From Psychrobacter submarinus (GTDB lineage: Bacteria > Pseudomonadota > Gammaproteobacteria > Pseudomonadales > Moraxellaceae): 64,000 nucleotides of DNA. The translations under genes and the position numbers were made by a program. Location of the stretch: positions 186,001-250,000 of the forward strand of contig NZ_CAJHBQ010000004.1 of NCBI RefSeq assembly GCF_904846685.1. The letters are read 5' to 3'. Shown here piece after piece: positions 1,006 through 54,169 of this stretch. Under the pieces are notes generated by a model. That model was given only the letters and a program-made list of their open reading frames with translations. It was not told the DNA's origin and ran no database searches. Within the stretch, counting starts at the first letter, position 1. Each line of letters opens with the position of its first letter.

Positions 1006-1554
1006 ATGTATCCTTACTTGCGTTACACTAAGTCGATCGTTGATGCGTTTATCACTAATAAAAAAGCTCAACCGTTAGCGTTTGAACAGGTCAGCGAAGT
1101 CACTGTACGCTGTAGTATTACCGATATCGATCCGATGTTTGAGATGAATAATGGCCGTGTATTGACCGTCTATGATATTGGCCGTACAGATTTTATCATT
1201 CGCACGGGGCTTGCCAAGCAGCTGCTAAAGAACCGTTGGGGTATGGTAGTGGCAGGCAGCACCATTCAATACCGTAAGCGTATCCGCCTGTTTGATAAAG
1301 TGACCATTAAGACGCAGCTCGTCGGTATAGATGAGCGCTGGCTCTATCTTGAGCATTCGATGTGGGTTAAAGGCAAACCTTGTTCCTCGGTGCTATTACG
1401 CACGGGCGTCACCAAAGGCGGCAAAGTCATTGAAACCGCCAAAGTGTTAAAGGCGTTAGGTGAGCCTAATTTAGTCATGTCACCTGAGCCATGGGTGCAA
1501 GAGTGGATAGCGTCCAATAAGGATCATCGTTGGCCGCCGATGGCTAAGGACTAA
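1006..1554 (+). CDS. Thioesterase-like (hot-dog fold) protein
   Basis: A 182-residue protein of the 4HBT_2/THEM6-like thioesterase group, expected to hydrolyse acyl-CoA or acyl-ACP thioesters in the cytosol. The segment ITDIDPMFEMNNGRVLTVYDIGRTDF corresponds to the hot-dog active-site region, with D-x-N around residues 42-50. The strand-rich part GSTIQYRKRIRLFDKVTIKTQL follows. It lies 40 bases after the YheT-like gene and may share its transcript. A 5'-fragment of a second, closely related copy lies immediately downstream at 1618, so the gene was once duplicated in tandem. Substrate cannot be told from sequence. Confidence 0.8.
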   Translation: MYPYLRYTKSIVDAFITNKKAQPLAFEQVSEVTVRCSITDIDPMFEMNNGRVLTVYDIGRTDFIIRTGLAKQLLKNRWGMVVAGSTIQYRKRIRLFDKVTIKTQLVGIDERWLYLEHSMWVKGKPCSSVLLRTGVTKGGKVIETAKVLKALGEPNLVMSPEPWVQEWIASNKDHRWPPMAKD

Positions 1555-1617: not shown

Positions 1618-1761
1618 ATGTACCCCTTTATTCGTCATACCGTCTCACTTATACAAGCTGTTTCGCAAGTCAAAAAGGGTCAGAGGCTAGCCTTAAATGA
1701 GGTCAGTGAAATTGAGTTTCGCTGTCAGTTGACGGAATATCTTCTAAATCATATAGTCTAG
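1618..1761 (+). pseudogene. 5' fragment of a second thioesterase copy
   Basis: A 47-codon frame starting MYPFIRHTVSLIQAV and continuing to EIEFRCQLTE is clearly homologous to residues 1-40 of the intact neighbour (MYPYLRYTKSIVDAF ... EVTVRCSITD). Similarity stops near 1735-1740, and the frame then runs into an unrelated fragment carried on the opposite strand. The rest of the gene is missing. The junction therefore looks like a deletion or recombination point that fused a thioesterase paralogue to foreign DNA. Confidence 0.8.
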
Positions 1762-1861
1762 ACAAAAACGCGGTTTCATCTAATCTTCCAGCCCAATCAA
1801 TACCTTCTACCTGCATAGCATCGAATATATGACGTCGAGTGATTTGAGTTATTTTGTTCAT
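1703..1861 (-). pseudogene. N-terminal fragment of an AbiJ-type abortive infection protein
   Basis: On the minus strand a 52-codon frame begins MNKITQITRRHIFDAM, continues with WAGRLDETAFLSRLYDLEDIPSTDS, and then stops. This resembles the N-terminal domain placed before Abi C-terminal domains in AbiJ-type phage-defence proteins (pattern W-x-GRL-x(4)-FLSRLYDL-x(3)-PSTDS). Similarity ends where the truncated thioesterase copy begins, so only the first ~48 residues survive. It is read away from the structured repeat at 2057. The family match is from memory and should be confirmed by a profile search. Confidence 0.65.
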
Positions 1862-1960: not shown

Positions 1961-2056
1961 CAAATTCTGTAAAAGTAGTAGAGGTTGACATGGGAAGCAG
2001 TTTAGCCTGAGCACCGTTAAAAAATTGCACTGCAATTTTAGGTGAACTTGGAGAGC

Positions 2057-2270
2057 GGTTTAGCCCCGATTGCAGCGGATATACTTGGCTGCACACTGTG
2101 TTGCGGGGACTTGGCTTTTCAGAAAATCATAGATTTTCTCTTGCGTCAGGGTAAGTGTCTCCCAGACACTTACTGTTTCCTTCCTCATATCGAGGCAACA
2201 GGAGCACGACTGCCTATTAGTCACCGCCACAGTGGCAGCTAAGATAGTAGCGTAAAGCGGGAATAGCTAC
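2057..2270 (+). repeat. Structured intergenic repeat, copy 1 (longest)
   Basis: Member of a four-copy family in this window. Conserved 5' end GTTTAGCCCCGATTGCAGCGG, internal box TTGCGGGGACTTGGC, apical-loop box ATCGAGGCAACAGGAGC and 3' end AGCGTAAAGCGGGAATAGCT. The 5' and 3' ends can pair (TAGC/GCTA and CCCG/CGGG). Two extra hairpins are embedded in this copy: an AGAAAATC/GATTTTCT stem near 2120 and GTAAGTGTCT/AGACACTTAC around 2151-2173. It abuts the stop codon of lip1. The AbiJ-type fragment is on its 5' side. Confidence 0.8.
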
Positions 2271-3971: not shown

Positions 3972-4223
3972 ATGGCACTACCGAAACTAAGAATACGTAT
4001 GAGCCGCAAACTATATCGCCTAGTATTTACTGGACTGATGGCCATGATGATGTCGCTTATTATTTCAGCGGCGCTGATACTGGTCAAAGCAGGCTATAGT
4101 GATCATTTCTTCGCTGACCTACTTAGCTCATGGGGACTAGGCTTTGTATTTGCATGGCCAAGCGCCTATGTCTGCGCATACTTTATCCAAGAGCATGTAC
4201 TGAGCCGTATTGAGTTTTATTGA
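3972..4223 (+). CDS. DUF2798 family small membrane protein
   Basis: An 83-residue protein with two predicted membrane helices (about 16-40 and 50-70). The pattern RLVFTGLMAMMMSLIISAALIL ... WGLGFVFAWPSAYV is typical of DUF2798 proteins. Function unknown; expected in the inner membrane. It stands alone between divergent and unrelated neighbours. GGACAAAAATGCGTT lies upstream, giving a plausible though spaced Shine-Dalgarno sequence. Confidence 0.75.
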   Translation: MALPKLRIRMSRKLYRLVFTGLMAMMMSLIISAALILVKAGYSDHFFADLLSSWGLGFVFAWPSAYVCAYFIQEHVLSRIEFY

Positions 4224-4383
4224 ACAATAAATGAGGATACTTGTGCGCTTATATGACAACAACAAAAAACTAAAATTGTGTTTTTTATACCATAGAACTT
4301 GACGCCTAAAACACCATAAGTAACTAAATTAATATTGCGTCAAACAGGTGGCGCTTGTTACTGTGGCTCACAACTTAACGATG

Positions 4384-4428
4384 AATAGTACTTTTATAAA
4401 TAGTACTTTTATAAATAATACCTCCATA
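4384..4428. repeat. 15-bp tandem repeat, three units
   Basis: AATAGTACTTTTATA occurs twice in direct succession (4384-4398, 4399-4413), followed by a degenerate third unit. It lies 16 bases upstream of the first MDR oxidoreductase, just before its AAGGA Shine-Dalgarno sequence, so unit number could affect promoter spacing. Confidence 0.8.
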
Positions 4429-4444
4429 AATCAAGGAATATATT

Positions 4445-5422
4445 ATGCGCAGCGCAACTTATAACGAATTTGGCAAACCCACCGAAGTCCTCAGCCTCGG
4501 CGATCGCCCTATCCCTGAGCCACAGGCCAATGAAGTCCGTGTCAAAACGGTACTCGCCTCTATCCACAACCATGATCTGTTAACCATTCGCGGTCAGTAT
4601 GGCTTTAAGCCAGAGATGCCTGCTATTGCAGGCTCCGAGGCGGTCGGCGTGGTCGATGCTGTGGGTAGCGAGGTTAAAAATCTCAAAGTCGGTCAGCGCG
4701 TTGCTGCCGCTAGCGTGCAAGCGACTTGGGCGGAGTATTTTGTCGCTGACGAGGACATGGTGTTTGCCATCCCTGAGAGCTTGGATGATAAGATGGCCGC
4801 GCAGCTGATCGCTATGCCGCTTAGCGCGCTTATGCTGCTTGAGTTCTTAGAAGTAAAAAGCGGACAATGGATTATCCATAACGCGGCGAACGGCGCAGTC
4901 GGTAAATCGCTTGCGATGCTAGCAGCGGCGCGCGGCGTCAACACTATCAATGTGGTACGTAGCAGCGATGCCATAAAAGAGCTAGAAGCAATCGGCGCAG
5001 AAAATAACGTCAGCACTGATAATGAGGACTGGAAAGAGCAAGTCAAAGCCATCCTTGGCGAGAATAAAATCAGCGCAGCAGTCGATTCAGTCGGCGGCGA
5101 CGCCAGTGGCGACTTATTATCACTGCTCGGTCATGGTGGCACCTTGGCGTCCTTTGGCATCATGTCAGGCCAGCCCATGACGCTCAATCCGACGCATCTT
5201 ATCTTTAAACAAGCCATCGTAAAAGGATTTTGGGGCAGTAAAATCAGCCAAGAGATGAGTGTGGAGAATAAACAGCGCTTAATCGATGAGCTAATCGAAC
5301 GCGCGACCAGTGGCAAGCTCCATCTGCCCGTTGAAGCGACATTTGATCTAGCAGATATCACAAAGGCCGTCGATGGCAAATTACAATCAGGCAAAAATGG
5401 TAAGGTGCTGTTAAAGCCATAA
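4445..5422 (+). CDS. MDR zinc-free alcohol dehydrogenase/quinone reductase, paralogue A
   Basis: A 325-residue medium-chain dehydrogenase/reductase, probably NADPH-dependent and acting on quinones or 2-enoyl thioesters; the substrate is not evident. The N-terminal GroES-like domain carries SIHNHDLLTIRGQYG and GSEAVGVVDAVGSEV. The coenzyme domain shows NAANGAVGKSLAMLAAARG and AAVDSVGGDASGDLL. No catalytic or structural zinc-ligand cysteines are seen. It starts after CAAGGAATATATT. The gene at 5764 is a clear paralogue in the same orientation, implying tandem duplication. Confidence 0.8.
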   Translation: MRSATYNEFGKPTEVLSLGDRPIPEPQANEVRVKTVLASIHNHDLLTIRGQYGFKPEMPAIAGSEAVGVVDAVGSEVKNLKVGQRVAAASVQATWAEYFVADEDMVFAIPESLDDKMAAQLIAMPLSALMLLEFLEVKSGQWIIHNAANGAVGKSLAMLAAARGVNTINVVRSSDAIKELEAIGAENNVSTDNEDWKEQVKAILGENKISAAVDSVGGDASGDLLSLLGHGGTLASFGIMSGQPMTLNPTHLIFKQAIVKGFWGSKISQEMSVENKQRLIDELIERATSGKLHLPVEATFDLADITKAVDGKLQSGKNGKVLLKP

Positions 5423-5491
5423 GGGCTATTAAAACCATAAGAATTTGCTACGCGTAAATTACCTGATCTAAAGTCCTTTAACAGCTCACTC

Positions 5492-5528
5492 AAAACAGTG
5501 CTTCTTATGATAGAAGCGCTGTTTTTTT
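5492..5528 (+). terminator. Rho-independent terminator
   Basis: AAACAGTGCTTCT, a six-base loop, AGAAGCGCTGTTT with a long T-run. It ends transcription of paralogue A about 70 bases after its stop. The rest of the 341-base gap up to 5763 shows no gene; it presumably holds the promoter of paralogue B. Confidence 0.85.
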
Positions 5529-5763
5529 ATGCAGAATGTTAATTCTGGTGCAAAAGTAGCACTCGTTAAGAAAGCCTTATGCTTAATCTCGACTCCCTTA
5601 CAATTCTAAGTCAGCCACAACGTTAAGTAACCAAAATCAAGTTGAGAACGCTTAGTCTGAGTTGTTATCGTTTATAAAAAGCAAATTGTTAAACTTAATT
5701 TCTTTGAGTACTCAATAATCTCTTTAAGTGCTCAAACTGATAAATAATAAAAAGGATACTTCT

Positions 5764-6744: not shown

Positions 6745-6772
6745 TGTATCGCCGTAAAGTTTATTTACCAAA

Positions 6773-6778
6773 AGAGGA
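6773..6778 (+). promoter_or_regulatory. Shine-Dalgarno sequence of acuI, displaced by the IS
   Basis: AGAGGA lies just left of the IS. If the IS and one TA duplicate are removed, it sits 8 bases upstream of the acuI ATG (AGAGGA-ATTAATATT-ATG), an ideal ribosome-binding site. The insertion has moved it about 870 bases away. Confidence 0.75.
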
Positions 6779-6781
6779 ATA

Positions 6782-7643: not shown

Positions 7644-7650
7644 TAATATT

Positions 7651-8670: not shown

Positions 8671-8704
8671 GATTTGGTTTAAAGAATAGTTTTTAGATGA
8701 TGGT

Positions 8705-8734
8705 AGCGCTCCTTTTTGGGAGTGTTGCTTTTTT
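8705..8734 (+). terminator. Probable rho-independent terminator after acuI
   Basis: AGCGCTCC, a T-rich loop, GGGAGTGTT, then a six-T run (with one GC interruption). It ends acuI transcription and marks the left edge of the following AT-rich insert. Confidence 0.65.
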
Positions 8735-8836
8735 AGAATTCAACATCATAAATATTACTAAGATTTTTAAGGTTAATTTTTTCTATATAATACTATTATC
8801 TTTAAATAATACTTCAACTTTAGGCTTAAAGTAAGC

Positions 8837-9367
8837 ATGAGAAACTTTAGTAAGGAAGAAAAAAACATTTTAAACCAGTTAATTAACTCGAACACATTAA
8901 AAATTGAAGGTATGATTTTGTTTGAAGTTTTTTTGGAAGATTACTTTTTTGGAGATGAACACGATAGCAACATTTATGTTAATAGTGATACTCGGGAAGT
9001 ATTTTTATCTATAAAGTCAAATGATGTAGTAAAACGTAGAAAGGAAACTGTTCGCGTGATAGTGATGGTTAACTTGCTAATGGAACTCATGAATTTAGGA
9101 ATAATTTCTTTTATTGGCAAAGAAAACGAAATAAAAAAATGTAGTGGTCAGCAGTATAACAATGCTTTAGTCAAAATAGATCAACCCATATCAAGTTTTT
9201 TACTTGAAAAGCTAGGCAGTTTTATTCTCCCTAGTGAAGAGTTAAGAGTATTAGTAAATAATAATTTTAAAAACTCGGAAGAAATACGCCATCGTCAGAC
9301 GATGATTTTAGCGATAGTAGCTATAGCGGTTTCTTTATTGATTGGATTGTTAGGTATTTTCTTTTGA
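8837..9367 (+). CDS. Unknown protein with C-terminal membrane anchor, in AT-rich insert
   Basis: A 176-residue protein I do not recognise. It is Asn/Lys/Ile-rich and visibly more AT-rich than the housekeeping genes, suggesting transfer. Residues ~1-145 look soluble and alpha/beta mixed. Residues ~155-175 (ILAIVAIAVSLLIGLLGIFF) form a single tail-anchor helix. It is directly followed, 88 bases on, by the Abi_C-type gene on the same strand, with structured repeat copy 2 downstream. A two-gene defence unit with a membrane partner is possible, but this is inference. Confidence 0.6.
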   Translation: MRNFSKEEKNILNQLINSNTLKIEGMILFEVFLEDYFFGDEHDSNIYVNSDTREVFLSIKSNDVVKRRKETVRVIVMVNLLMELMNLGIISFIGKENEIKKCSGQQYNNALVKIDQPISSFLLEKLGSFILPSEELRVLVNNNFKNSEEIRHRQTMILAIVAIAVSLLIGLLGIFF

Positions 9368-10436: not shown

Positions 10437-10588
10437 CGTTTTAGCCTCGATTGCAGCGGTTATCCTTGTTGGATCACTAGATTGCAGCGACTTAGCCCGC
10501 TGTGGTATCGCGGTAGCAGAAACACAGCGGGCTTTAGTCGCGGCTCTAGTGGGCAGACAAGATAATAGCGGAAAGCGAGAATAGCTCC
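10437..10588 (+). repeat. Structured intergenic repeat, copy 2
   Basis: Shares CGTTTTAGCC, GATTGCAGCGGTTATCCT, apical box GGTATCGCGGTAGCAG and 3' end GATAATAGCGGAAAGCGAG + AATAGCTCC with the other copies. It folds into a long stem: GCGACTTAGCCCGCTGTG pairs with CACAGCGGGCTTTAGTCGC, flanked by CACTAGA/TCTAGTG. The Abi_C-type insert is on its 5' side. Confidence 0.85.
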
Positions 10589-10668: not shown

Positions 10669-11661
10669 TTATTTTTTCTTCTTTTTCTGCTTCTCGGCAC
10701 GTTTTTTCTCAATCAGGGTTTGAGCGGTAGTATTTTCTTCCCACCAATCGCCCATATCTTGCCAGTAGAGATAAGCCTGCTCTTTACCACCAATTTCGAT
10801 ACCATAACTATTGATACCCATACCGCGTGGTCTAGGATGACGCTTTTTAAGAATTTCATGCGCCACTTCAGGCAAGTTATCTTTTGCGATATCCCACTCT
10901 TTTTCAGCCTTATCTAATTTATCTTGATAACAGTAAGCCAGCACCTTACCGAAAGCGATATTTGCAAGCATATCCTCTGGATAGTTGCCGCAAATTCGAA
11001 TTATTTTCTGATACTCTTCGGTAAACATGTACCATTCTATCAGCGCTTCACGCATACCTAGGTTGTCATTAGGGCAAACTTGTAGCAGCCTTTCTCCCTG
11101 CTCGCAGGCTTCATCAAAGCTCATATTGTCAGCATAGACATTTGCCAGCTGAAACAGCGCTCGCAAAAAGGGACGGTTCTCCATGATGCCCCATGGCAGC
11201 TTACTTTTTTGCCAATTAAAGTTTTTGGGGAAATACTCTAAGTATAGGCGCATACATTCGCGGCTACTCAATAGTGCTAAAAAGCTGTCATCATGCTGCT
11301 CACACAAAAATGCTAAGTTAAAGTAAGCATCAGGGTCATTCATATTCTCTAATACTAAAAACTGAGCAATATCACGAGCCACTTCATAACCTTCTTTCTC
11401 CAGCGTCATCTGTATCACTTGGAATGAGGTTGGCGGCTGCTCATCAAAGTCTTGCACAATTTCATGCTGAAATTTGGTCATGACTTCATTCATAATATCG
11501 TTGATATCACGACCTCTTTTTACCTCGGCATCTACAAAGGCTTTTATTTTAAGATTAAGCGCTCTACCAGCGCCAAGCGCATTTGATCTATTGTCAGCCA
11601 ACTTATCGCTAACGTCATCTTCAAACATCCACTCGTTTTGTCCCACATGAACCAGTTTCAT
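10669..11661 (-). CDS. TPR-containing protein of unknown function
   Basis: A 330-residue, mostly helical soluble protein. Repeated A/L-rich helical pairs (NDPDAYFNLAFLCEQHDDSFLAL, RPFLRALFQLANVYADNMSFDEACEQGERLL, ANIAFGKVLAYCYQDKLDKAEKEW) suggest ST7/TPR-like repeats from ~100 to 265. A conserved-looking end (GGKEQAYLYWQDMGDWW) precedes a Lys-rich tail. It starts 48 bases after the end of guaA on the same strand, so it may be cotranscribed with it. No enzymatic motif seen. Confidence 0.6.
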   Translation of the reverse strand: MKLVHVGQNEWMFEDDVSDKLADNRSNALGAGRALNLKIKAFVDAEVKRGRDINDIMNEVMTKFQHEIVQDFDEQPPTSFQVIQMTLEKEGYEVARDIAQFLVLENMNDPDAYFNLAFLCEQHDDSFLALLSSRECMRLYLEYFPKNFNWQKSKLPWGIMENRPFLRALFQLANVYADNMSFDEACEQGERLLQVCPNDNLGMREALIEWYMFTEEYQKIIRICGNYPEDMLANIAFGKVLAYCYQDKLDKAEKEWDIAKDNLPEVAHEILKKRHPRPRGMGINSYGIEIGGKEQAYLYWQDMGDWWEENTTAQTLIEKKRAEKQKKKKK

Positions 11662-18096: not shown

Positions 18097-19662
18097 ATGA
18101 CCACCTCTAACGACTCGATTTATTTCTTAGCCATCGACAATGGCACGCAAAGCGTCAGAGCGCTTATCTTTGATCAATTTGGTACTGAGATCGCTAAAGC
18201 CCGCGTACCTATCGAGCCGTATTTCTCTGAACAGCCCAATTATGCCGAGCAGCACGCCGACTACTATTGGCAAAAGCTATGTGAGGCCTACCAAAAGCTC
18301 TGGCAGACCTGCGAGATTAAACCTGAACAAATCGCTGGCGTCAGTCTCGCTACCCAGCGCTATACCATGATTTGCCTTGATAAAGACAAGCAGCCGCTAC
18401 GTCCCGCTATCGTCTGGATGGATTTGCGCCGTGCTGAGACTGGTGATATCGGCTTTCTTGGCCCGCTTACCAAAATCATCGGCATGGGCGAATTAGTCAA
18501 GGACGCCCAACAAAAAGCGCGCTGTAATTGGCTCGCGCAAAACGAGCCTGAGATATGGGCAAAGACTGCGCACTACGTTAATCTCTCCGCCTACCTTACC
18601 TATCAGCTCACAGGCGAATTAATTGACTCAAACGGTCATGCCGTCGGCTATCTGCCTTACGACTACAAAGCGCAAACATGGCTCAAACCCAACACCCTGA
18701 AATGGCGACTGTTTAGCTGTACCCCCGAGCAAATGCCCAAAATCATCCCACCAAGCCAAACTCTTGGTGAGATAAGCGCCAAAGCTGCCAAAGTCACAGG
18801 TATCCCAGAGGGCACGCCGATGATTGCCGCCGCCAGTGATAAAGCCTGCGAAGCCCTAGGCGCAGCGGGACTGTCCGCCGATACTGCGTGTCTTAGCTTT
18901 GGCACCACCGCCACCATCAACACCATCTCCCCCGATTATGTCGAGATACTCAAACACATGCCCGCCTATACCGCCGCCGCCCCGCATTACTACAATCACG
19001 AGTACATGATTTATCGCGGCTTTTGGATGGTCAGCTGGTTTAAAGAGCAATTCGCCCATTTTGAGGCGCAACTTGCCAAAACCCAAGGCATCGACACCGA
19101 AAAGCTCCTTGACGCAGCCGTCAAAGGCATTCCAGCCGGCAGCATGGGACTTATCATGCAGCCCTATTGGTCACCGGGCGTGCGTCATCCGGGGCTTGAT
19201 GGCAAAGGCGCCCTCATCGGTTTTGGCGATGTGCACACCCGCGCACACGTCTACCGCGCTATCTTAGAAGGGCTGGCTTATGAGCTTAAGCTTGGCTTTG
19301 ATACGATTGAAAAGCGCACCGGCAAACCCATCAAACACCTGCGCGTCTCAGGCGGCGGCTCCCAAAGCGACGCCGCTATGCAGCTCACCGCCGACATCTT
19401 TGCCATGCCCGCCTACCGCCCGCACACTTTTGAAGCCACTGGCCTCGGCGCGGCCATCAACTGCGCGGTGGGTCTCGGCGTCTATCCTGACCACGCTGCT
19501 GCCAGCGACGCCATGACCCATTTAGGCGACGAATTCTTACCTATTGAAGCCAACGTGCAACTCTACAAGCGCCTGTATAACGAGGTCTATCTGAAGATGT
19601 ACGAGCGCCTAAAACCCTTATACCAAAGCATTCAAGACATCACGGGATATCCCGCTAAGTAA
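18097..19662 (+). CDS. FGGY-family carbohydrate kinase
   Basis: A 521-residue sugar/polyol kinase. The N-terminal actin-like domain starts FLAIDNGTQSVRALIFDQFG (phosphate 1 motif) and has WMDLRRAETG. The C-terminal domain has AAASDKACEALGAAGLSADTACLSFGTTATI and LRVSGGGSQSDAAMQLTADIF with AxGLGAAI. It is not a classical GlpK, so the substrate is open. Position after glpD suggests a glycerol-like or C3 substrate. ATG 18097 follows AAGGACAACT. The 3' half is notably GC-rich relative to neighbours. Confidence 0.85.
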   Translation: MTTSNDSIYFLAIDNGTQSVRALIFDQFGTEIAKARVPIEPYFSEQPNYAEQHADYYWQKLCEAYQKLWQTCEIKPEQIAGVSLATQRYTMICLDKDKQPLRPAIVWMDLRRAETGDIGFLGPLTKIIGMGELVKDAQQKARCNWLAQNEPEIWAKTAHYVNLSAYLTYQLTGELIDSNGHAVGYLPYDYKAQTWLKPNTLKWRLFSCTPEQMPKIIPPSQTLGEISAKAAKVTGIPEGTPMIAAASDKACEALGAAGLSADTACLSFGTTATINTISPDYVEILKHMPAYTAAAPHYYNHEYMIYRGFWMVSWFKEQFAHFEAQLAKTQGIDTEKLLDAAVKGIPAGSMGLIMQPYWSPGVRHPGLDGKGALIGFGDVHTRAHVYRAILEGLAYELKLGFDTIEKRTGKPIKHLRVSGGGSQSDAAMQLTADIFAMPAYRPHTFEATGLGAAINCAVGLGVYPDHAAASDAMTHLGDEFLPIEANVQLYKRLYNEVYLKMYERLKPLYQSIQDITGYPAK

Positions 19663-19733: not shown

Positions 19734-19884
19734 GGAGCTAATCGCGCCTTCTGCTTGTCTCTGTACCCCTAAGCGTGGCGGGCACTAAAGCTAGAGGCGT
19801 TCCAACATTCGAGCGACCCCCTCTAGCCAAGTGCCCGCAACCCGCTTAGTCGCACAGGATACCGCGTCAGTCACGGCTAAAACG
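19734..19884 (-). repeat. Structured intergenic repeat, copy 3
   Basis: Read on the minus strand: CGTTTTAGCCGTGACTGACG and CGGTATCCTG, internal box GGTTGCGGGCACTTGGC, a GGCTAGAGG.../CCTCTAGC stem, and 3' end GGCGCGATTAGCTCC. The apical loop is the most divergent of the four (GGTCGCTCGAATGTTGGAAC). GCGGGCAC/GTGCCCGC and GACTAAGCG/CGCTTAG pairs support a long stem. The YobI-like gene lies on its 5' side. Confidence 0.75.
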
Positions 19885-19903: not shown

Positions 19904-22900
19904 TTAGTTTCCTAGAACATGCAATTGTAATCTTGTAGTAAGCACTTTTTGTCCCATTAGACTGCCTTTCGGCTTTTTAGCTTTCGGAACTTTTACTATC
20001 TGTACATTATTCAAGGCTTTTAATAAAGTCCGATTTTCTTCACTATTGTTAAACTCAACATCTTCACCTTTAGCTAATTTTTGATAAGGAACTTCTAATA
20101 GTTCCAGCACTTTTAGAATTTCATATTTATCTAAATACTTAATTTGTCTTAACAATAATTCTCTTAACTCCTTAAAGTTAGCATGTTTAAGAAGCTGCTC
20201 GTAAACAGGTAAAGACATTCTCTCATTTTCGTATATTTCAATAATTTTCTTACGAACAGTCTCATTACTTTCTATAAGATTAATAGCTTTAGACTCAGCT
20301 AAGACTTTTTTGTGTGCGTTACTAACTTCATTAGAGCAAAATAATTCTTCGATATCTTCTGGACGAAGCTCGATAGTATCCAAATCATGTATTAATGTAT
20401 AATGATATTTAACTAAAAAAGCCAGCACAACCTCTTTAGATGCGTGTTCTTTGACTTGTTCCCAGTTTTCAGAAGTTAAACTTAGCTTTCCTAGAGATAT
20501 TAGAGTCTGAACTTTCTCTTGACTGATATCCTCTAAGTTTGAGTTGTCCCAATTGTTGTCAGTGATATCGATTAGCTTTTTGTATGCTTCATCACTTAAC
20601 TCACTACATAAAAAAAGATTTTTATCGAACTCAGCCTTAGTATCTTCCCAGTCTTCGATGTCTATAACAACTGACTCTGTATAATCAACTATTTGTAAGT
20701 AGTCTTGTCCATTTTCCAAGAATTTGATAAGCGAACCGTCTATCTCCCGATAAGCACCTTGATCATCCTGATCTTCATAAGACTCAGAAAAATACTTAAA
20801 AACGTTTGACCATGAGTATTGGACTTTTAAGCTGCCGATGAGATATTGTTGAATTTGATAGTTTTTGACTGCACCTATATCTTTGATCTTAGTAGAATTG
20901 AGGTCAATAAATTTTTCTGTTATCGAATTGCGACTATCAAGACCGTTGAGAGCTTTAATATAGATATCTTCATCTTCATGATATGAAGTATTATCATCCG
21001 CGTCTAATAAAATAACTCTTATATATTCTGATAGATTTTCAGACCAAATATCTTCAACTAAATAGTTGATTTCAGAATCACATATTGTTGTTAATGGTGC
21101 GTTTTTAAGCCTATTATCTAGTTCATCTGGTGATAGTGATAAATTACCCATCAAGGCAGCCTTGATTACATCCAACTCGACAGAAAAAAATCCTTGTTCA
21201 CCAAGCCAGTTGAATAAATCAAGGTTTGTAGCATCTAGGCGAGAGAACTTAGGTTGTATGGAAAGACTGAGCTGTTTGAATTTTCCTTCATTCTTTGAAA
21301 GGGAGTTCATTACAAAATCAATATAATCGTTCCTTTGTGATAAAAATATATTAATTTTTTCAGATAGATAGCTAGACGTATCTAGAATATCAATACCATA
21401 TCTGATAATTTTTGAGTAATTATTAGTTGTCTGTTCGTCTTCAATATCATCTAGTATCTCATCAAAAACAGTATCATCTTGCTTTATAAGTATAGGAATG
21501 AGTAAGCTTAGATAACTGACGTCCTTATTGAACAAAATAGCTAAAAACTCAATTGAGATATCTGATTTATCACATATTTTTTGTATGGAATTTTGCTTAT
21601 GCTTTATAAAACTAGTAGTTTCTAACAAATATCCCAACATGCTAATATTTAAAACACTAGATGTACTCATCTCATCTTCTGATAAGTAACTTAATAACAG
21701 TTCGCCTTGATGAGTTAACTCTAGTTCAAACTTAGGCATTTGACGTCCATTGACAACCATCGCATAGTTCTTATCTGATCTCGATATAGAAGACTCAAAA
21801 AACAAAGAAATATAATCAGGATAGTTCTCGTTAATATAGCCATTTATAATAAAAAACATCAACTGTTCAGGAATATCTGGTATTTCTTCATCTTGAAGTA
21901 ACTGCTTTATATCTATATCTTGAAGCAGTCTTTTTATCGTCTTATTTTTAATAGTGTAAAGCTCATCCTTGAGTCTGCTTAAATTATTAGATATCTGTTT
22001 TTTCTCCTCGTTGGTTTTAGCTCTTATAATAGCTAATCGCTCACTATAGATAAGCTGCGAATTAATTGAATCCTCAACATCCGAAAAAGACACACCACTA
22101 GAATCAAACCAGTAATGGCTACTATTTTCGGCGCTAAATTCAATTTTTTTATTTTTTAAACTTTCAAGCTTTAAAAATAAATCTTCGTCATATTTGTCAA
22201 TATCAACCGGCTCACCATCTACCTTTATGTATTTAACCACATCATGTTTCTTGCGAATCAAACTATTTAAATAGTAGCTATAAACAGCATTAAGCTCATC
22301 AATAGACAATAGCATCTCATTTGAAAGCTCTAACTTTCTTCGTTCTAGTTCATGGATCTTTTCAGTAATTCCCGCTATCTTTTTATCTATTAAACTGTTT
22401 TTTACATTATTAAATATATCGTATATCAGACCTCTGTTTGAATTCAGTTTTGAAAAATCATTTGGATAGTAGTTTTTATATACAATTATAGCAAAAACTT
22501 GGTTCTTATCTAGCTGTAAATATTTTAAATGATTATCATAATCTTGATACTCATTTAAAATGTTTTTCACCAGTCTCATATCATCAAAATATAAACAAGT
22601 ATTCCTTAAAAAACGTTTATCTATATCTTTTACCACTTCTTTATAGTTCTTTTGGATTAAGTCATACGCATTTGTTGGATTAATGATCGGAATAATAGGT
22701 ATAATATATTCAAAGAATTTACTTCTTTCATTGTCAGTAAACATATCGTCTTTAATAGCATATATAAAAACCACTCTATCCTCACAATACTTGTTTATCA
22801 TAGAGTTGAGTTCGCGTAGCCTTACAAAAATTTCGTTATTATTGAACCGATCTAAATCTTCGATAATGACAACATTTTTTCCAGTAGCCTCAAAAAAATA

Positions 22901-23740
22901 TAAAATTTCATCTAAATGATCGTTAAGAATAGACTTATCTTTTTCATTCTTTATATTAAATTCTGAGTTATGAAAGCTAAGCTTAATCTCAGATAATTCA
23001 AAAGAGATATTCAACAGCTTGTAAAGTAATAGTATAGAACATACTAAAAAAAACCAAAATGCCAATTCTGGTAGCCAAGTAGGTAGAGAGTATATAGCTT
23101 CAATATAACCAACCTTATCAAAAACTATTAATCCACTTATAACTAGTATTATCACTGATAAGGCTGTAATCCTGTTGGTTAAGGCATTACCAGTAATTCT
23201 TTTAAATCTTGATAAGGGAATTTTATTTTGAGGTACAGCATAAAAGAACTGTTGTAGTATGCTTCTTTCTATAAGCTGAATCTGCTCAGGCGTTAAATCC
23301 TCTTTTATTTTTATATTATTATCGTTTTCATCAATAGTATTTAAGTCTTTGTTATCCGATAAGGTATCCTTATTAACCTGAAAAGAAGAAAGAGAAATAT
23401 CTAAAAATTCCCATTGACTATTTTCTTTATATTTTTTCTTAAAGGTATTTAAGACACTACTTTTCCCTGAACCATATATTCCTGTTACAGCTATATTGAA
23501 GACACTTTCTTCATTCAGTGCAGATATTAATCTATTTTCATACCTTTCATAGCTCTCTTTTCCTTCTCCTTCATCTAAGTTATTTAAAGGAGATAGAGAA
23601 TGAATTTGATGTTCATTCTCTACTTTAGAATTACTGATTTTTTCTAATTTTACTCTATGGTTGAGTATTATTTTTTCCACTAATTGAATTTCCTTTTTCA
23701 GGGGTTTGCTATAGAATTTCAAAGAAAGGTTTAATTTCAC
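19904..23740 (-). CDS. Giant YobI-like/KAP P-loop NTPase with membrane helices
   Basis: A 1278-residue STAND/KAP-type NTPase resembling the YobI-like P-loop domain. SLSPLNNLDEGEG precedes the Walker A GIYGSGKSS (87-95). Two membrane helices follow (~190-245), then Walker B VVIIEDLDRF (~285) and sensor-like VVFIYAIKDD. The remaining ~900 residues are helical and repeat-like, a probable sensor. Such proteins are suspected anti-phage effectors; function here is inferred. Start GTG 23740 lacks a well-spaced Shine-Dalgarno; an in-frame GTG 20 codons on has AAGGAA in good position. AT-rich; only 35 bases from patB. Confidence 0.7.
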   Translation of the reverse strand: MKLNLSLKFYSKPLKKEIQLVEKIILNHRVKLEKISNSKVENEHQIHSLSPLNNLDEGEGKESYERYENRLISALNEESVFNIAVTGIYGSGKSSVLNTFKKKYKENSQWEFLDISLSSFQVNKDTLSDNKDLNTIDENDNNIKIKEDLTPEQIQLIERSILQQFFYAVPQNKIPLSRFKRITGNALTNRITALSVIILVISGLIVFDKVGYIEAIYSLPTWLPELAFWFFLVCSILLLYKLLNISFELSEIKLSFHNSEFNIKNEKDKSILNDHLDEILYFFEATGKNVVIIEDLDRFNNNEIFVRLRELNSMINKYCEDRVVFIYAIKDDMFTDNERSKFFEYIIPIIPIINPTNAYDLIQKNYKEVVKDIDKRFLRNTCLYFDDMRLVKNILNEYQDYDNHLKYLQLDKNQVFAIIVYKNYYPNDFSKLNSNRGLIYDIFNNVKNSLIDKKIAGITEKIHELERRKLELSNEMLLSIDELNAVYSYYLNSLIRKKHDVVKYIKVDGEPVDIDKYDEDLFLKLESLKNKKIEFSAENSSHYWFDSSGVSFSDVEDSINSQLIYSERLAIIRAKTNEEKKQISNNLSRLKDELYTIKNKTIKRLLQDIDIKQLLQDEEIPDIPEQLMFFIINGYINENYPDYISLFFESSISRSDKNYAMVVNGRQMPKFELELTHQGELLLSYLSEDEMSTSSVLNISMLGYLLETTSFIKHKQNSIQKICDKSDISIEFLAILFNKDVSYLSLLIPILIKQDDTVFDEILDDIEDEQTTNNYSKIIRYGIDILDTSSYLSEKINIFLSQRNDYIDFVMNSLSKNEGKFKQLSLSIQPKFSRLDATNLDLFNWLGEQGFFSVELDVIKAALMGNLSLSPDELDNRLKNAPLTTICDSEINYLVEDIWSENLSEYIRVILLDADDNTSYHEDEDIYIKALNGLDSRNSITEKFIDLNSTKIKDIGAVKNYQIQQYLIGSLKVQYSWSNVFKYFSESYEDQDDQGAYREIDGSLIKFLENGQDYLQIVDYTESVVIDIEDWEDTKAEFDKNLFLCSELSDEAYKKLIDITDNNWDNSNLEDISQEKVQTLISLGKLSLTSENWEQVKEHASKEVVLAFLVKYHYTLIHDLDTIELRPEDIEELFCSNEVSNAHKKVLAESKAINLIESNETVRKKIIEIYENERMSLPVYEQLLKHANFKELRELLLRQIKYLDKYEILKVLELLEVPYQKLAKGEDVEFNNSEENRTLLKALNNVQIVKVPKAKKPKGSLMGQKVLTTRLQLHVLGN

Positions 23741-50476: not shown

Positions 50477-51823
50477 ATGGAGTTAAGAAGACATAATGTC
50501 GAAGTTAATGATGCTGACCCTTTTGCAAATGATTGGTTGGAACGCAAGGGGTTTGCTGACCAACTAACGAATATCGTTGAGAATAATAAACAAGGTGAAG
50601 TAGTTATAGGTCTTAGCGGACAGTGGGGTGAAGGTAAAACGACTTTTGTTAAAATGTGGCAAAAGCATATGGAGAACAAAGACATTGCCTCCATTTATTT
50701 TGATGCGTTTGAATATGACTATATAGAAGATGTGTTTCTATCTTTAGCTATTGAGATATACAACTATGCCGAGGTAAATGGTCTTACTGCACAAGAGGAT
50801 TATCTAAACAAGTCTAAGAACACTTATCACCTTCTACAAGCTATGATAGCAAAAACCTCACCTATCAATATAGACTCAAGTCTTCAGGAAAAGCTAGTAG
50901 ATAACGAGAATCAACCATTTGATATTGCTAAAATTATTAAGGATAATTTAAACTTTTCATTAGATAATGCTTTTGAACAAGCATTGAAAAAGAAAGAAGT
51001 GTTTAGAGATTTTAAAAAGTCCCTATCACAACTTGCAACTCAAGCTTCGAATCAAGATATACCTTTTATTATCATAATTGATGAACTAGATAGATGTAAG
51101 CCTAGCTTCGCTGTTGAGATATTAGAAAAGATAAAGCATTTATTTTTAGTAGAAGGGGTCGTTTTTGTTCTATCTATGCATCATGAACAGTTAGAAGAAT
51201 CTATTAAAAAGGTATACGGTCAGAACATAGATGCTCACACCTATTTACAAAAATTCATCGACTATCCGACTAGACTGCCAAAAGCTGATTTATCTAATAA
51301 TAGTAACCGTAGAAAATACTTTTATAATCAAGTAGATTTTATAGGACTACCTACACGTCCGTCTAGTTCTATGAATAGTTCATATGAACTGTTTCTACTA
51401 CTTTCGATTCGTTACGACCTGTCCTATAGACAGTTAAATAAAGCTTTACAGAATTATAAGTATCTTTTAGCTAGCTTAGATACTAATTTTGATAACTTGT
51501 ATCCTAAAATGTTTTTAATGGTTTTTATAAGCATACTTAAAGTAAAAAATGGGCATTTAATTTCTAAAATAAGAAACAACACTGCTACCTATACAGACTT
51601 AGTTGAGAATGCTTTAGAAGTTAGAGGGCAGGGTGACTTTAATATTGAAACGCTTCAGAACTTTCTTAAGCTTAGTTTCCTTACCATTGATGGCTTTCAA
51701 GAATCTGAGCATGGTTCTCAAGAAGCAAGTTTCTATAATAACTTTGCTGGCTTAATAGGACGAAATCAAAACAAAGTCCTAATGAGTTTGGTTCAACGTT
51801 TAGAGTCTTTCGAAGACTATTAG
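50477..51823 (+). CDS. KAP-family P-loop NTPase
   Basis: A 448-residue KAP NTPase. Walker A is GLSGQWGEGKTTF (45-57), Walker B FIIIIDELDRC (197-207), and the region before it has YFDAFEYDYIEDVF. Unlike many KAP proteins it shows no obvious membrane helices between the Walker motifs. KAP proteins occur in phage-defence loci and may act with partner effectors; the role here is inferred. AT-rich against its neighbours. ATG 50477 follows AAGGATGAGGCA. Ends two bases before the convergent gene at 51826. Confidence 0.8.
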   Translation: MELRRHNVEVNDADPFANDWLERKGFADQLTNIVENNKQGEVVIGLSGQWGEGKTTFVKMWQKHMENKDIASIYFDAFEYDYIEDVFLSLAIEIYNYAEVNGLTAQEDYLNKSKNTYHLLQAMIAKTSPINIDSSLQEKLVDNENQPFDIAKIIKDNLNFSLDNAFEQALKKKEVFRDFKKSLSQLATQASNQDIPFIIIIDELDRCKPSFAVEILEKIKHLFLVEGVVFVLSMHHEQLEESIKKVYGQNIDAHTYLQKFIDYPTRLPKADLSNNSNRRKYFYNQVDFIGLPTRPSSSMNSSYELFLLLSIRYDLSYRQLNKALQNYKYLLASLDTNFDNLYPKMFLMVFISILKVKNGHLISKIRNNTATYTDLVENALEVRGQGDFNIETLQNFLKLSFLTIDGFQESEHGSQEASFYNNFAGLIGRNQNKVLMSLVQRLESFEDY

Positions 51824-51825
51824 AT

Positions 51826-52401
51826 TTAGCTAAAAAATTTGACGGCTTCCGCAGCTGTCACTCCCAAAATGCTTGCAATAGTCCCGTTATTAAGAAGATC
51901 AAGCAGTTTGCTTTTTGCTTCTGGGTCACCGCTTTTTTCAATCTCATTGATTAAGGTCTGTAGATTGATATTAATATCAGTGGCGTTATGAGTATTGGTT
52001 TGACTGTTGTTATTGCCAAATTGAGCATTTCCACTAACATTATAATTTGTAGTCATTGCTTCTTCCTTATTATTGGTAATAGCGGTATCTATAGTATTAA
52101 TTAAATTTTGAGCATTGCATAGAATGCTATCATCAATTGAGAGATTATTATCTTGATTTCTAGTAAATAGGTTGAAAGCTTCTATAACTTCTCTATCGTA
52201 CGCATTGTTTCTCAGTAGAGCAGAATGACCATGCACAAAAGCTATAAACTCAGTCTGAGTCTCTTCTAAAGCTTGAGCCGTTATAGGATTTGGTTCTGTT
52301 AGATGCATACTTAACTTTGTTTTAAAATGTGCAAGTATTGCCAACCAATTTGATTTATAAGACATTTTGTGACCTATGCTATTCTTGAGAGCTACGTTCA
52401 T
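51826..52401 (-). CDS. Unknown protein paired with the KAP NTPase
   Basis: A 191-residue protein I do not recognise. Residues ~1-110 are helical. An Asn-rich segment (VSGNAQFGNNNSQTNTHN, ~124-141) resembles the glycine/asparagine hinge seen before effector tails in some defence proteins. The end (SKLLDLLNNGTIASILGVTAAEAVKFFS) is amphipathic and could bind membranes. Convergent with the KAP gene and lying between it and structured repeat copy 4. A shorter start at 52365 (MSYKSNW) is possible. Low-G+C; function unknown. Confidence 0.55.
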   Translation of the reverse strand: MNVALKNSIGHKMSYKSNWLAILAHFKTKLSMHLTEPNPITAQALEETQTEFIAFVHGHSALLRNNAYDREVIEAFNLFTRNQDNNLSIDDSILCNAQNLINTIDTAITNNKEEAMTTNYNVSGNAQFGNNNSQTNTHNATDININLQTLINEIEKSGDPEAKSKLLDLLNNGTIASILGVTAAEAVKFFS

Positions 52402-52472: not shown

Positions 52473-52623
52473 GTTTAGCCCTGACATGAGCGGTTATCCT
52501 GACGGGCTGGGCGAGTTGCGGGCGTGTCGTTTTGAGAGGGTATCGAGGCAACAGGAGCCTCTCAAACGACAGAGCCCGCCTTGCCCAGACTGGCAGATAA
52601 TAGCGGGTGGCAGGAATAGCTAC
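52473..52623 (+). repeat. Structured intergenic repeat, copy 4
   Basis: Conserved ends GTTTAGCCCTGACATGAGCG + GTTATCCTG and GATAATAGCGGGTGGCAGG + AATAGCTAC; internal box GAGTTGCGGGC; apical box GGTATCGAGGCAACAGGAGC, identical to copy 1 over ATCGAGGCAACAGGAGC. Long stems: TGTCGTTTTGAGAGG with CCTCTCAAACGACA, and GGGCTGGGCGAG with CTTGCCCAG. The KAP pair is on its 5' side and thrC on its 3' side. Confidence 0.85.
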
Positions 52624-52750: not shown

Positions 52751-54169
52751 ATGAAATATATCAGTACCCGTGGTCAGACTGAGCCGATGGATTTTAGTGA
52801 TGTACTCCTTATGGGGCTTGCACCTGACGGCGGTTTGATGCTGCCTGAGCATTACCCAACCGTTGCCAGCGATGTGTTAGAAGAGTGGCGTCATCTTAGC
52901 TATACCGATCTAGCACTAGCGATTATGCAGCGCTTTGCTACGGACATTCCTTATGCGGATCTAAAAGACATTATTGATCGCACTTATACGGCTGATATAT
53001 TTGGCTCTGATGACATTGTTCCTGTCCGCAAGCTCGAAGACAACTTATATATTTTAGGCTTATCAAACGGTCCGACTTTGGCGTTTAAAGATGTCGCGAT
53101 GCAGTTCTTGGGTAATGCCTTTGAGTACGTGCTTAAGCGTCAGGACGCGCGTATCACCATCATCGGTGCGACCAGTGGTGACACGGGTAGTGCTGCCGAA
53201 TACGCCCTGCGCGGTAAAGAAAACGTCGAAGTCTTTATGCTGTCACCACATGGCAAAATGAGTGAGTTTCAGCGCGCGCAGATGTATAGCTTAACCGACG
53301 ACAATATCCACAATATCGCCATCAAAGGTATGTTTGATGATTGCCAAGATATCGTCAAAGCGCTGCAACAAGACGCTGAGTTTAAGGCAAAATATAACCT
53401 AGGAACGGTCAACTCGATCAACTGGGGACGGATACTCGCGCAGATTGTTTATTACTTTAAAGCATATTTCGCAGTGACGGATAGCAATGAGGAGACCGTT
53501 AGCTTCAGTGTGCCCTCAGGTAACTTTGGCAATATTTGCGCCGGCCACATTGCGCGTGAGATGGGACTACCGATTGAGCGGCTCATCGTTGCGACCAACG
53601 AGAATGATGTGCTCAATGACTTCTTTAACCAAGGCGCGTATCAGCCGCGCACCACGGACAAAACTTACGTCACCTCAAGTCCATCGATGGACATCTCTAA
53701 AGCTTCCAACTTTGAGCGTTTTGTTTATCTATTATTAGAAAAAGATAGTGCGCGTGTTCATGAGCTGTTTGAAGGGGTGAAATCAGGGCAAGGTTTTGAT
53801 TTGTCTGAGGTGATGGAACAGGTCAATAACCGTTATGGCTTCGCGGCAGGCAAGTCCACTCATGCCGATCGTCTGCACACGATCAAAGAAGTATATGAGC
53901 AATACGGAGAGCTGGTTGATCCGCATACCGCTGACGGTATTAAAGTCGCTAAAGAATTGCAGCAAGAAGGGGAAGTGATTATCTGCGCCGAGACGGCATT
54001 GCCTGTGAAATTCGCTGAGACCATTATTGAAGCGGTTGGGCCGATAGAGATTGCTCGTCCTAAGCATACTGAAGGTCTAGAGGACTTAGAGCAGCATGTA
54101 ACGGTATTGGATAATAAAGCTGAACTAGTCGCTGAACAAATTCGCCAGCATGTTGCGTCAAATGTCTAG
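52751..54169 (+). CDS. thrC: Threonine synthase
   Basis: A 472-residue PLP enzyme converting O-phosphohomoserine to threonine. N-terminal MKYISTRGQTEPMDFSDVLLMGLAPDGGLMLPEHYP is typical of the long ThrC class. The PLP Lys is in PTLAFKDVAMQFLG (~113). IIGATSGDTGSAAEYAL and VNSINWGRILAQIVYYFKAY follow. Full length. Its native upstream region has been altered by the KAP insert and repeat copy 4. Confidence 0.95.
   Translation: MKYISTRGQTEPMDFSDVLLMGLAPDGGLMLPEHYPTVASDVLEEWRHLSYTDLALAIMQRFATDIPYADLKDIIDRTYTADIFGSDDIVPVRKLEDNLYILGLSNGPTLAFKDVAMQFLGNAFEYVLKRQDARITIIGATSGDTGSAAEYALRGKENVEVFMLSPHGKMSEFQRAQMYSLTDDNIHNIAIKGMFDDCQDIVKALQQDAEFKAKYNLGTVNSINWGRILAQIVYYFKAYFAVTDSNEETVSFSVPSGNFGNICAGHIAREMGLPIERLIVATNENDVLNDFFNQGAYQPRTTDKTYVTSSPSMDISKASNFERFVYLLLEKDSARVHELFEGVKSGQGFDLSEVMEQVNNRYGFAAGKSTHADRLHTIKEVYEQYGELVDPHTADGIKVAKELQQEGEVIICAETALPVKFAETIIEAVGPIEIARPKHTEGLEDLEQHVTVLDNKAELVAEQIRQHVASNV

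What the first reader, a model, noticed from the sequence alone, without database searches (positions are those of the whole stretch)
2057..2270. Repeat family keeps its loop and ends but exchanges its stems: a sign of selected fold
Stems differ completely in sequence among copies yet remain paired: TGTCGTTTTGAGAGG/CCTCTCAAACGACA in copy 4, GCGACTTAGCCCGCTGTG with its complement in copy 2, GCGGGCAC/GTGCCCGC in copy 3, extra hairpins in copy 1. The unpaired parts (apical ATCGAGGCAACAGGAGC, TTGCGGG box, TAGCC/GCTA ends) are conserved. Such compensatory change suggests a functional folded RNA or folded single-stranded DNA rather than a decaying MITE. I recall similar intergenic hairpins with TAGCCC...GGGATAGCTCC ends in distant phyla but cannot name a described family.
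Basis: partly seen in the sequence, partly recalled or inferred. Interest (0 to 1): 0.75.

Follow-up and report, generated by a model that had tools for sequence, protein, structure and literature searches.

The report
Foldable border element of defence-gene slots
A repeated, tightly folded 150-letter sequence, known so far only as the unexplained "Flavo-1" motif of Bacteroidetes, also lives in the bacterium Psychrobacter, where it usually marks one edge of genome slots whose contents, often anti-virus genes, differ from strain to strain.

Summary
The repeat is real and belongs to a described family: Rfam RF01705 "Flavo-1" (E2 51.4 bits, E1 43.5, cut-off 42), of unknown role, listed for Bacteroidetes (PMC2864571). 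The window holds four copies. The fold is selected: 685 cells with double changes vs 211 shuffled (68 elements); G.T pairs outnumber A.C 151:59, so the + strand folds as a single strand. Stems are partly exchanged en bloc: at the E4 site outer arms are 95-97% alike, the apical hairpin 56%.

New: within its family only Psychrobacter has it (57 of 66 genomes; 0 of 133 others). Its 3' end mostly faces core genes, its 5' side a slot of changing content (134 pairs with similar right flank, 11 with similar left), often anti-phage: window Abi_C, KAP/QatA-like, Tmn.

Best reading: border or attachment hairpin for exchangeable defence modules, read as folded single strand in trans. Not attC, not an IS200 end. 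RAYT transposases have their own REPs, but Flavo-1's minus strand begins with the GGAG/GTAG tag in 59 of 68 and copy number is higher where RAYT genes occur, so a RAYT-type enzyme stays open. How cargo moves is inferred.

The parts
2059..2270 (+). E1, Flavo-1 element with a ~63-nt insert (about 2117-2187)
   Evidence: cmscan 43.5 bits; profile hits 2059-2116 and 2188-2270; ortholog L027 is 149 nt
1711..1861 (-). 50-codon gene fragment left of E1 (MNKITQITRRHIFDAMQVEG...), perhaps a relic of a defence cargo gene
   Evidence: translation; likeness to AbiJ N-terminal domains is recalled, not tested
1006..1554 (+). nearest intact gene left of E1: thioesterase-like (4HBT_2), not a defence gene
   Evidence: Pfam 1.2e-19 for the same gene in L001
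2270..3214 (-). gene to the right of E1; the L027 ortholog is an alpha/beta hydrolase
   Evidence: Pfam of the L027 ortholog
10440..10588 (+). E2, Flavo-1 element
   Evidence: cmscan 51.4 bits
9444..10319 (+). E2 cargo: Abi_C (abortive infection C-terminus) protein, 291 aa
   Evidence: Pfam 1.3e-13; no PADLOC match
8837..9367 (+). E2 cargo: 176-aa protein without family match
10669..11661 (-). gene to the right of E2 (330 aa), then a guaA-like gene; absent between element and guaA in L023 and L379
   Evidence: guaA name recalled
19734..19881 (-). E4, Flavo-1 element below the Rfam cut-off
   Evidence: profile hit 6.2e-25; sequence
19904..23740 (-). E4 cargo: 1278-aa YobI-like P-loop NTPase (Tmn)
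   Evidence: Pfam 4.1e-102; PADLOC Tmn 1.8e-65
18097..19662 (+). core kinase gene (glycerol-kinase-like, name recalled) right of E4
   Evidence: orthologs flank empty and filled sites
52474..52623 (+). E3, Flavo-1 element below the Rfam cut-off
   Evidence: profile hit 8.4e-26
50477..51823 (+). E3 cargo: KAP P-loop NTPase (PDC-S20 / QatA-like)
   Evidence: Pfam 5e-41; PADLOC 1.2e-88
51826..52401 (-). E3 cargo: 191-aa protein without family match
52751..54169 (+). core gene right of E3 (threonine-synthase-like, name recalled)

Best explanation
The element is the Psychrobacter branch of the Flavo-1 family: a ~150-nt sequence whose + strand folds into one long, internally looped hairpin. It usually stands with its 3' end towards core genes and its 5' end towards a slot that holds exchangeable cargo, often one to three anti-phage genes. 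Most likely it is a border or attachment hairpin: during replication or DNA uptake a strand of it folds as single-stranded DNA and is recognised in trans by an enzyme not encoded in the slot, which lets cargo be inserted or swapped on its 5' side while the hairpin stays with the core flank. A RAYT-type (HUH, single-strand) transposase is the first candidate enzyme. Shown: family identity, selection on a strand-specific fold, block-wise difference of inner hairpins at orthologous sites, conserved right flank with variable left content, empty sites in relatives. Inferred: that the folded form is DNA rather than RNA, that a dedicated enzyme reads it, and that it causes rather than merely borders the exchange.
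For: Rfam RF01705 at gathering score for E1 and E2 and in 9 of 20 Psychrobacter loci that I chose (one of the 20, L003, is E3's own and misses). Fold: 89.8% of cells paired vs 70.8 shuffled, covariation score 0.513 vs 0.182. Strand: G.T 151 vs A.C 59 at the 46 pairs common to folds derived from either strand, p 1.7e-10. Slot: 21 right-flank site clusters; in 16 no pair has a similar left flank, in 3 some, in 2 all; 134 pairs with similar right flank, 11 with similar left too. E4 site: in four genomes element plus right flank are 87-92% alike and no similarity was found between the cargoes in the five comparisons printed: Tmn, an McrB-like restriction protein, a UG17-like reverse transcriptase, a 1346-aa protein without match. 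Site D: of twelve loci, the slot is complete in eleven; 1.2-4.0 kb between an nrdA-like gene and the element, with nine kinds of cargo. Empty sites: 15 of 30 loci read at E4 have 10-79 bp between the same two genes, 20 of 29 at E3 have 41-58 bp. Cargo: PADLOC at 1e-10 in 7 of 20 random left genes vs 1 of 20 right genes (Fisher p 0.044); at 1e-5 the 93 left representatives together hit 333 families, the 70 right ones 63. DNA rather than RNA: PMC9723704. Candidate enzyme: the minus strand begins GGAG or GTAG in 59 of 68 elements, and Flavo-1 counts are higher in the 34 genomes with a RAYT-type PF01797 match (median 3.5 vs 1.5 in 66 without, p 7e-4).
Against: No enzyme was shown. Homology at site D begins anywhere from 10 to 67 nt left of the element, compared with one reference: no fixed crossover point. 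Of the 20 sampled left genes, the 9 from the copy-rich genomes G083 and G104 have no PADLOC match (7 of the other 11 do), so many copies there seem to be without defence cargo. Slots can hold other DNA without the element (L348; 1.1 kb in L302). Cargo also occurs on the 3' side: in 3 of 12 site D loci (L226, L234, L235) ~0.6 kb with a toxin-antitoxin-like gene pair (recalled likeness) lies right of the element, and the gene right of E2 is absent in L023 and L379. No bias with respect to GC skew (48 of 104). In Bacteroidota the enrichment is weak (10 families on the left, 1 on the right) and convergent placing is rare (5 of 68). Similar copies (85-96%) within G083 share homology left to -184 and right to +85, so the unit that moves is not clearly the element. 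The RAYT tag is on the strand that the wobble count does not favour, RAYT genes have their own REPs in 13 of 13 loci, and G083 (42 copies), G011 (17) and G081 (7) lack a RAYT-type match.
Confidence: 0.38

Rival explanations
1. Passive border: Flavo-1 is an old hairpin-ended repeat that came in with some cargo and was left behind; later cargo swaps are ordinary homologous or homology-facilitated illegitimate recombination between strains, and the repeat is merely the last conserved stretch before the slot.
For: Scattered left junctions; slots with other DNA but no element; solo copies; cargo on the other side in some loci.
Against: Strong, strand-specific conservation of the fold over 68 elements below 90% identity is not expected of a leftover; in 16 of 21 site clusters only the right flank is shared.
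Confidence: 0.27
2. Selfish repeat: Flavo-1 is an elaborate GGAG/GTAG-tagged hairpin moved by RAYT-type transposases; the link with defence slots is secondary, both favouring 3' ends of core genes.
For: Minus strand starts GGAG (35) or GTAG (24) in 68; 32 of 42 elements from L064 on as well; copy number higher with RAYT-type genes, 9 of 12 genomes with at least 7 copies have one; Flavo-1 lies within 2 kb of a RAYT gene in 4 of 14 RAYT loci; inverted pairs about 250-860 bp apart in G083.
Against: RAYT genes carry their own, different GTAG REPs in 13 of 13 loci; three copy-rich genomes have no RAYT-type match (PF01797 at 1e-5 may miss some); the tag is on the strand less favoured by wobble; the AG of the tag is itself paired in the model; genome relatedness was not corrected for.
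Confidence: 0.17
3. Functional RNA: a structured non-coding RNA or 3' UTR element read from the + strand, carried with defence modules.
For: Covariation and G.T wobble fit RNA as well as single-stranded DNA; rated probably RNA in PMC2864571 (table passage); genes within 6 kb on the left lie 227:130 on its strand (orthologous sites counted repeatedly).
Against: F. psychrophilum: many hits not in mapped transcribed regions, either strand (PMC9723704); no sigma-70-type promoter found in the 79-174 nt before E2, E3 or E4; 37 of 93 left representatives run the other way.
Confidence: 0.1
4. Insulator or terminator: the hairpin shields core genes from read-through of the cargo.
For: It sits at 3' ends: right gene convergent in 52 of 66; one weak terminator-like site lies inside E3.
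Against: 1, 1 and 0 terminator-like sites around E2, E3 and E4, near what shuffles give (0.5, 0.4, 0.3); such a role does not need invariant internal loops; convergent placing is rare in Bacteroidota.
Confidence: 0.08

Closest known systems
Flavo-1 RNA motif, Rfam RF01705 (Weinberg et al. 2010, PMC2864571)
   Same: Same ends, same outer pairing, passes the curated cut-off
   Different: Psychrobacter copies are mostly 148-151 nt with further inner helices and a set of apical loops; Bacteroidota copies listed are mostly 60-156 nt with one inner hairpin of free sequence. Slot association not described in the passages read
REP/RAYT systems
   Same: Dispersed intergenic hairpins; minus strand begins GGAG/GTAG in 59 of 68; counts rise with RAYT-type genes
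   Different: RAYT genes in Psychrobacter are flanked by other, simpler GTAG REPs (13 of 13 loci); the strand favoured by wobble is the other one; 150 nt with nested helices
Integron gene cassettes with attC
   Same: Variable genes with a foldable site on one side; strand-specific single-strand fold
   Different: No RYYYAAC/GTTRRRY boxes near the ends (0 of 68), integrase over cut-off in 2 of 100 genomes, hairpin stays with the core flank instead of travelling with the gene
Rhs/CDI toxin-tip exchange and other defence hotspots
   Same: Conserved flank, exchangeable tip or cargo; one Rhs-like array carries four Flavo-1 elements
   Different: There the homology is the Rhs core; here a foldable element that differs widely between sites

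Membership tests
Flavo-1 (RF01705) | covariance-model score at or above 42 bits | tested here: met
   E2 51.4, E1 43.5; 9 of 20 chosen Psychrobacter loci. E3 and E4 give no match at E<=1 but match a Psychrobacter profile at 8e-26 and 6e-25
Flavo-1 (RF01705) | listed taxon: Bacteroidetes | tested here: not met
   84 of 100 Psychrobacter genomes have the 3' motif, 0 of 133 genomes of 15 other genera of the family. A matter of distribution, not of structure
REP elements of RAYT transposases | GTAG/GGAG tag at the 5' foot of the hairpin | tested here: inconclusive
   0 of 68 on the + strand, but 59 of 68 on the minus strand, which is not the strand favoured by wobble. That GGAG counts as a REP tag is recalled
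REP elements of RAYT transposases | flank the RAYT gene | tested here: not met
   13 of 13 RAYT loci read have other, GTAG REPs (by eye); Flavo-1 within 2 kb in 4 of 14, two of them orthologous
REP elements of RAYT transposases | repeats occur where a RAYT gene is present | tested here: inconclusive
   medians 3.5 vs 1.5 copies, p 7e-4, but G083, G011 and G081 are copy-rich without a RAYT-type match at 1e-5
Integron attC | R'' RYYYAAC and R' GTTRRRY boxes at the ends | tested here: not met
   0, 0 and 0 of 68, + strand, first and last 25 nt
Integron attC | integron integrase in the genome | tested here: not met
   over cut-off in 2 of 100
IS200/IS605 transposon ends | found at the ends of Y1 transposase elements | tested here: not met
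   no profile hit at E<=0.001 in the 20 loci L184-L203 around the best PF01797 matches
Phage-borne element | common in viral contigs | tested here: not met
   5 stretches in the IMG/VR scan with the exact 5' motif; the INPHARED phages were not searched
Intrinsic terminator | GC stem followed by a T run | tested here: inconclusive
   one site beside E2 (10632-10607), one weak 6-pair site inside E3 (52591-52573), none at E4, close to shuffles
Discrete small RNA | transcribed product | not testable with these tools
   published F. psychrophilum data argue against it; no Psychrobacter RNA data at hand

The most novel reading that the evidence does not exclude
Flavo-1 is the foldable attachment site of an undescribed cassette system, shared by Bacteroidota and Psychrobacter, that loads and swaps anti-phage genes at many chromosomal slots using an enzyme encoded elsewhere, perhaps a RAYT-type single-strand transposase, and that diversifies its own hairpins by swapping whole arms between copies.
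Probability: 0.22. Interest if true: 0.88.

Novelty: new variant of a known kind. Interest (0 to 1): 0.62.

Why it matters
Flavo-1 is a widespread structured family without a known function: one paper says its data gave no real clue, another lists none. Tying it to the border of exchangeable defence-gene slots gives a first testable role, offers a sequence handle for finding new anti-phage genes next to core genes in Psychrobacter, and, if the hairpin is read by an enzyme, points to a cassette system outside integrons. The block-wise arm differences also warn that covariation counts alone can overstate independent compensatory changes.

Tried and rejected
Searching whole genomes with the Rfam family itself gave 0 matches even in the window's own genome, probably because the inner part is long; patterns and a profile built here were used instead. 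attC/integron: boxes and, nearly, integrase absent. IS200/IS605 ends: no hit. Phages and plasmids: 5 viral stretches and one weak partial plasmid match to E1. Replication-strand bias: none by GC skew. Fixed crossover point: none. Own promoter or terminator: none convincing. I had first set REP/RAYT aside because RAYT genes have their own REPs; on checking, the minus strand of Flavo-1 carries the GGAG/GTAG tag and copy number rises with RAYT-type genes, so I made it a rival of its own and lowered the best reading from 0.40 to 0.38, the passive border from 0.35 to 0.27, RNA from 0.15 to 0.10 and insulator from 0.10 to 0.08. Paper searches for the slot idea held nothing; and one search were seen as listings only. 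The scan at 3 mismatches was about as rich in the reversed control outside the genus and was not used for distribution.

Rows dropped before counts: for the fold alignment only elements that span the profile and are longer than 135 and shorter than 165 nt were kept (112 distinct, 68 below 90% identity), so E1 and other elements with inserts are left out; only the 127 elements with both flanks of at least 350 nt were compared, some from one genome (the G083 repeats and the L219 array are among them) and named and unnamed copies of one genome may both be in. In one search, 67 of 81 right representatives were given. The 34 RAYT-type genomes were sorted by eye from the PF01797 list (full-length IS200-type matches and fragments left out), and the copy counts were typed.

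Full report
What is there. The window lies in a genome of the genus Psychrobacter (named by hits; the genome itself is unnamed). It holds four copies of one element: E1 2059-2270 (+), E2 10440-10588 (+), E3 52474-52623 (+) and E4 19881-19734 (-). Rfam's covariance models name E1 and E2 as Flavo-1, RF01705 (43.5 and 51.4 bits, cut-off 42). E3 and E4 fall below, but match a profile built from 46 Psychrobacter elements at 8e-26 and 6e-25. Of 20 Psychrobacter loci that I chose, 9 contain an element above Rfam's cut-off (L003, E3's own, does not).

Family and spread. Flavo-1 is listed for Bacteroidetes, as probably RNA and probably not cis-regulatory (PMC2864571, table passage read). The 3' motif occurs in 84 of 100 Psychrobacter genomes with no hit of the reversed pattern, and in a family-wide sample in 57 of 66 genomes of the genus and 0 of 133 genomes of 15 other genera (counted from its rows; the family name Moraxellaceae is recalled). 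By this motif the copy number is usually under ten and reaches 42 in G083. Viral contigs hold 5 stretches with the exact 5' motif.

Fold. On 68 elements below 90% identity, a 51-pair structure has 89.8% of cells paired, 685 cells with both sides changed and a covariation score of 0.513, against 70.8%, 211 and 0.182 in shuffles and at most 43.2%, 157 and 0.124 when partners are slid; pairs with a double change are 37 against 33.4 (13 of 500 shuffles reach 37). The structure was derived from these sequences, which favours it over the slid versions. At 46 pairs present in folds derived from either strand, G.T pairs number 151 and A.C 59 (p 1.7e-10): the + strand folds as a single strand. That does not tell RNA from DNA. 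Outer arms are nearly invariant, including internal loops; inner helices vary; the apical loop comes in several types.

How the stems differ. At orthologous sites the inner hairpin can differ as a block. At E4, genome G099 differs from three others by 3-5% in the outer part and 44% in the apical hairpin. At site D, two groups of genomes differ by 4-12% outside and 40-50% in the apical hairpin. At site C one pair of types shows 10-13% and 40-43%. In L370 at site B almost the whole inside is different between identical ends. So part of the covariation comes, it seems, from exchange of whole hairpins between copies. Selection on the fold is still needed to explain why well-paired hairpins are found, but the number of independent compensations is lower than the count.

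Surroundings. In Psychrobacter the gene to the right of the element is convergent in 52 of 66 cases (p 2.8e-6). Right flanks are shared between genomes and left flanks mostly not: 21 right-flank site clusters, of which 16 have no pair with similar left flank, 3 some and 2 all; 134 pairs of elements with similar right flank, 11 with similar left flank as well, and 26 pairs with similar left flank only, which are the G083 repeats (11), one cargo family at two neighbouring sites (12) and three single pairs. At site D (nrdA-like gene, slot, element, nrdB-like gene; names recalled) the slot is complete in eleven of twelve loci and holds 1.2-4.0 kb; two cargo types occur in two genomes each, the others once. 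In three of the twelve, ~0.6 kb with a toxin-antitoxin-like pair (recalled likeness) lies on the right side of the element instead or as well. At E4, four genomes with 87-92% identical element and right flank carry a Tmn NTPase, an McrB-like restriction protein, a UG17-like reverse transcriptase and a 1346-aa protein without family match. The E4 site is empty in 15 of 30 loci read (10-79 bp between the same genes) and the E3 site in 20 of 29 (41-58 bp). The window's other cargo is an Abi_C protein at E2 and a KAP NTPase at E3; left of E1 there is a thioesterase-like gene and a gene fragment, no intact defence gene.

Defence enrichment. In a random sample of 20 of 93 left and 20 of 70 right representative genes, 7 left and 1 right gene match PADLOC at 1e-10; the right one matches only a methyltransferase-like model, mad2 (Fisher two-sided p 0.044). 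All 7 come from the 11 sampled genes outside G083 and G104; 0 of 9 from those two copy-rich genomes match (L169 counted with G104 because contig lengths agree). At 1e-5 the left representatives together hit 333 PADLOC families, among the 25 shown Cas3f, Hachiman HamB, AriAB, Gabija GajB, Lamassu, type I and II methyltransferases and NucC; the right ones 63, the 25 shown being one Cas1, two candidate families and mad2. The Pfam families shown for right genes are mostly housekeeping; the left list also holds metabolic enzymes. In Bacteroidota the contrast is weak: 10 families among 67 left representatives, 1 among 67 of 81 right ones, and genes are mostly in tandem around the element (51 of 68).

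Other arrangements. In G104 an Rhs-like array (by recalled likeness) has four Flavo-1 elements, three of them with the next 1 kb about 90% alike. In G083, two elements can face each other by their 5' ends with about 250-860 bp between them, once holding a dehydrogenase-like gene; in the metagenome genome of L081 and L152 a second inverted element is seen by eye. L110 and L371 have one and two large genes between such a pair. So cargo mostly meets the 5' end and core genes the 3' end.

What it is not, and what stays open. attC boxes are absent (0 of 68) and integron integrases rare (2 of 100 over cut-off). IS200-type loci do not carry it (20 loci). Terminators and promoters are not evident. RAYT genes of Psychrobacter have their own GTAG REPs (13 of 13 loci read by eye), but the minus strand of Flavo-1 begins GGAG or GTAG in 59 of 68 Psychrobacter elements and in 32 of 42 elements from L064 on, and the 34 genomes with RAYT-type matches have more copies (median 3.5, mean 5.3) than the 66 without (1.5, 2.6; p 7e-4, relatedness not corrected); still G083, G011 and G081 are copy-rich without one. 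A RAYT-type enzyme is therefore a real candidate for whatever reads Flavo-1.

RNA or DNA. In Flavobacterium psychrophilum, Flavo-1 hits seemed indistinctly sense or antisense of the mapped transcribed regions, and many were not in them (PMC9723704, passages read). This speaks against a dedicated RNA and, with the strand-specific fold, for single-stranded DNA; it is one species and not Psychrobacter.

Mechanism. I commit to a border or attachment hairpin read as folded single strand in trans (0.38). Against it: no enzyme shown, scattered left junctions, slots without the element, cargo on the wrong side in some loci, no replication bias. A passive border with ordinary recombination (0.27) and a RAYT-moved selfish repeat (0.17) follow. 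In print I found no account of the slot association: searches, of which PMC2864571, PMC9723704, PMC9029176 and PMC3765529 were opened, for passages only.

Noticed in passing
L219 (G104) 4099-16826: Rhs-like array (recalled likeness): core fragment, several tip and neighbour-gene pairs, four Flavo-1 elements, three of them about 90% alike together with the next 1 kb
   Followed up: partly
L204-L213, L220, L222, L223: Two RAYT subtypes in Psychrobacter, flanked by classic GTAG REPs (GTAGGTTGGGTGGAGCTTGCGACACCCAACA and GTAGGCTGGGCTTTTAGCCCAGCA types)
   Followed up: partly
minus strand of 59 of 68 Flavo-1 elements: Begins with the GGAG/GTAG tag of REP elements, although the fold favours the other strand
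   Followed up: partly
L081, L102, L108, L152, L166 (Bacteroidota): A high-copy module ending in Flavo-1; in L081 and L152 a second, inverted Flavo-1 stands at its other side, and several copies lie at contig ends
   Followed up: partly
window 2016-2040; L047, L056, L265: Another small Psychrobacter repeat (GCCGTTAAAAAATTGCACTGCAATTTTAGG...) lies upstream of E1 and inside some Flavo-1 elements
   Followed up: no
L226, L234, L235 right of the element: A toxin-antitoxin-like gene pair (recalled likeness) on the 3' side of Flavo-1 at site D
   Followed up: no
L216 8356-9862 and window 10669-13320: The gene beside E2 stands between the element and a guaA-like gene; in L216 a guaA-like C-terminal fragment precedes it (duplication suspected, not checked); L023 and L379 lack it
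   Followed up: no
L050 1774-2619: Slot cargo with a type VI retron reverse transcriptase (PADLOC 8.9e-71)
   Followed up: no
L345 1755-5795: 1346-aa slot protein with a P-loop-like start and no Pfam (1e-3) or PADLOC (1e-5) match: candidate new defence protein
   Followed up: no
window 37921-37990 and 43534-43563: Repeats holding TTATCCACA, like DnaA boxes (recalled): possibly the replication origin
   Followed up: no
L093, L138: Bacteroidota Flavo-1 elements with another hairpin-like repeat (CTTCGACT..GCTCAG) inside their variable part, seen by eye
   Followed up: no
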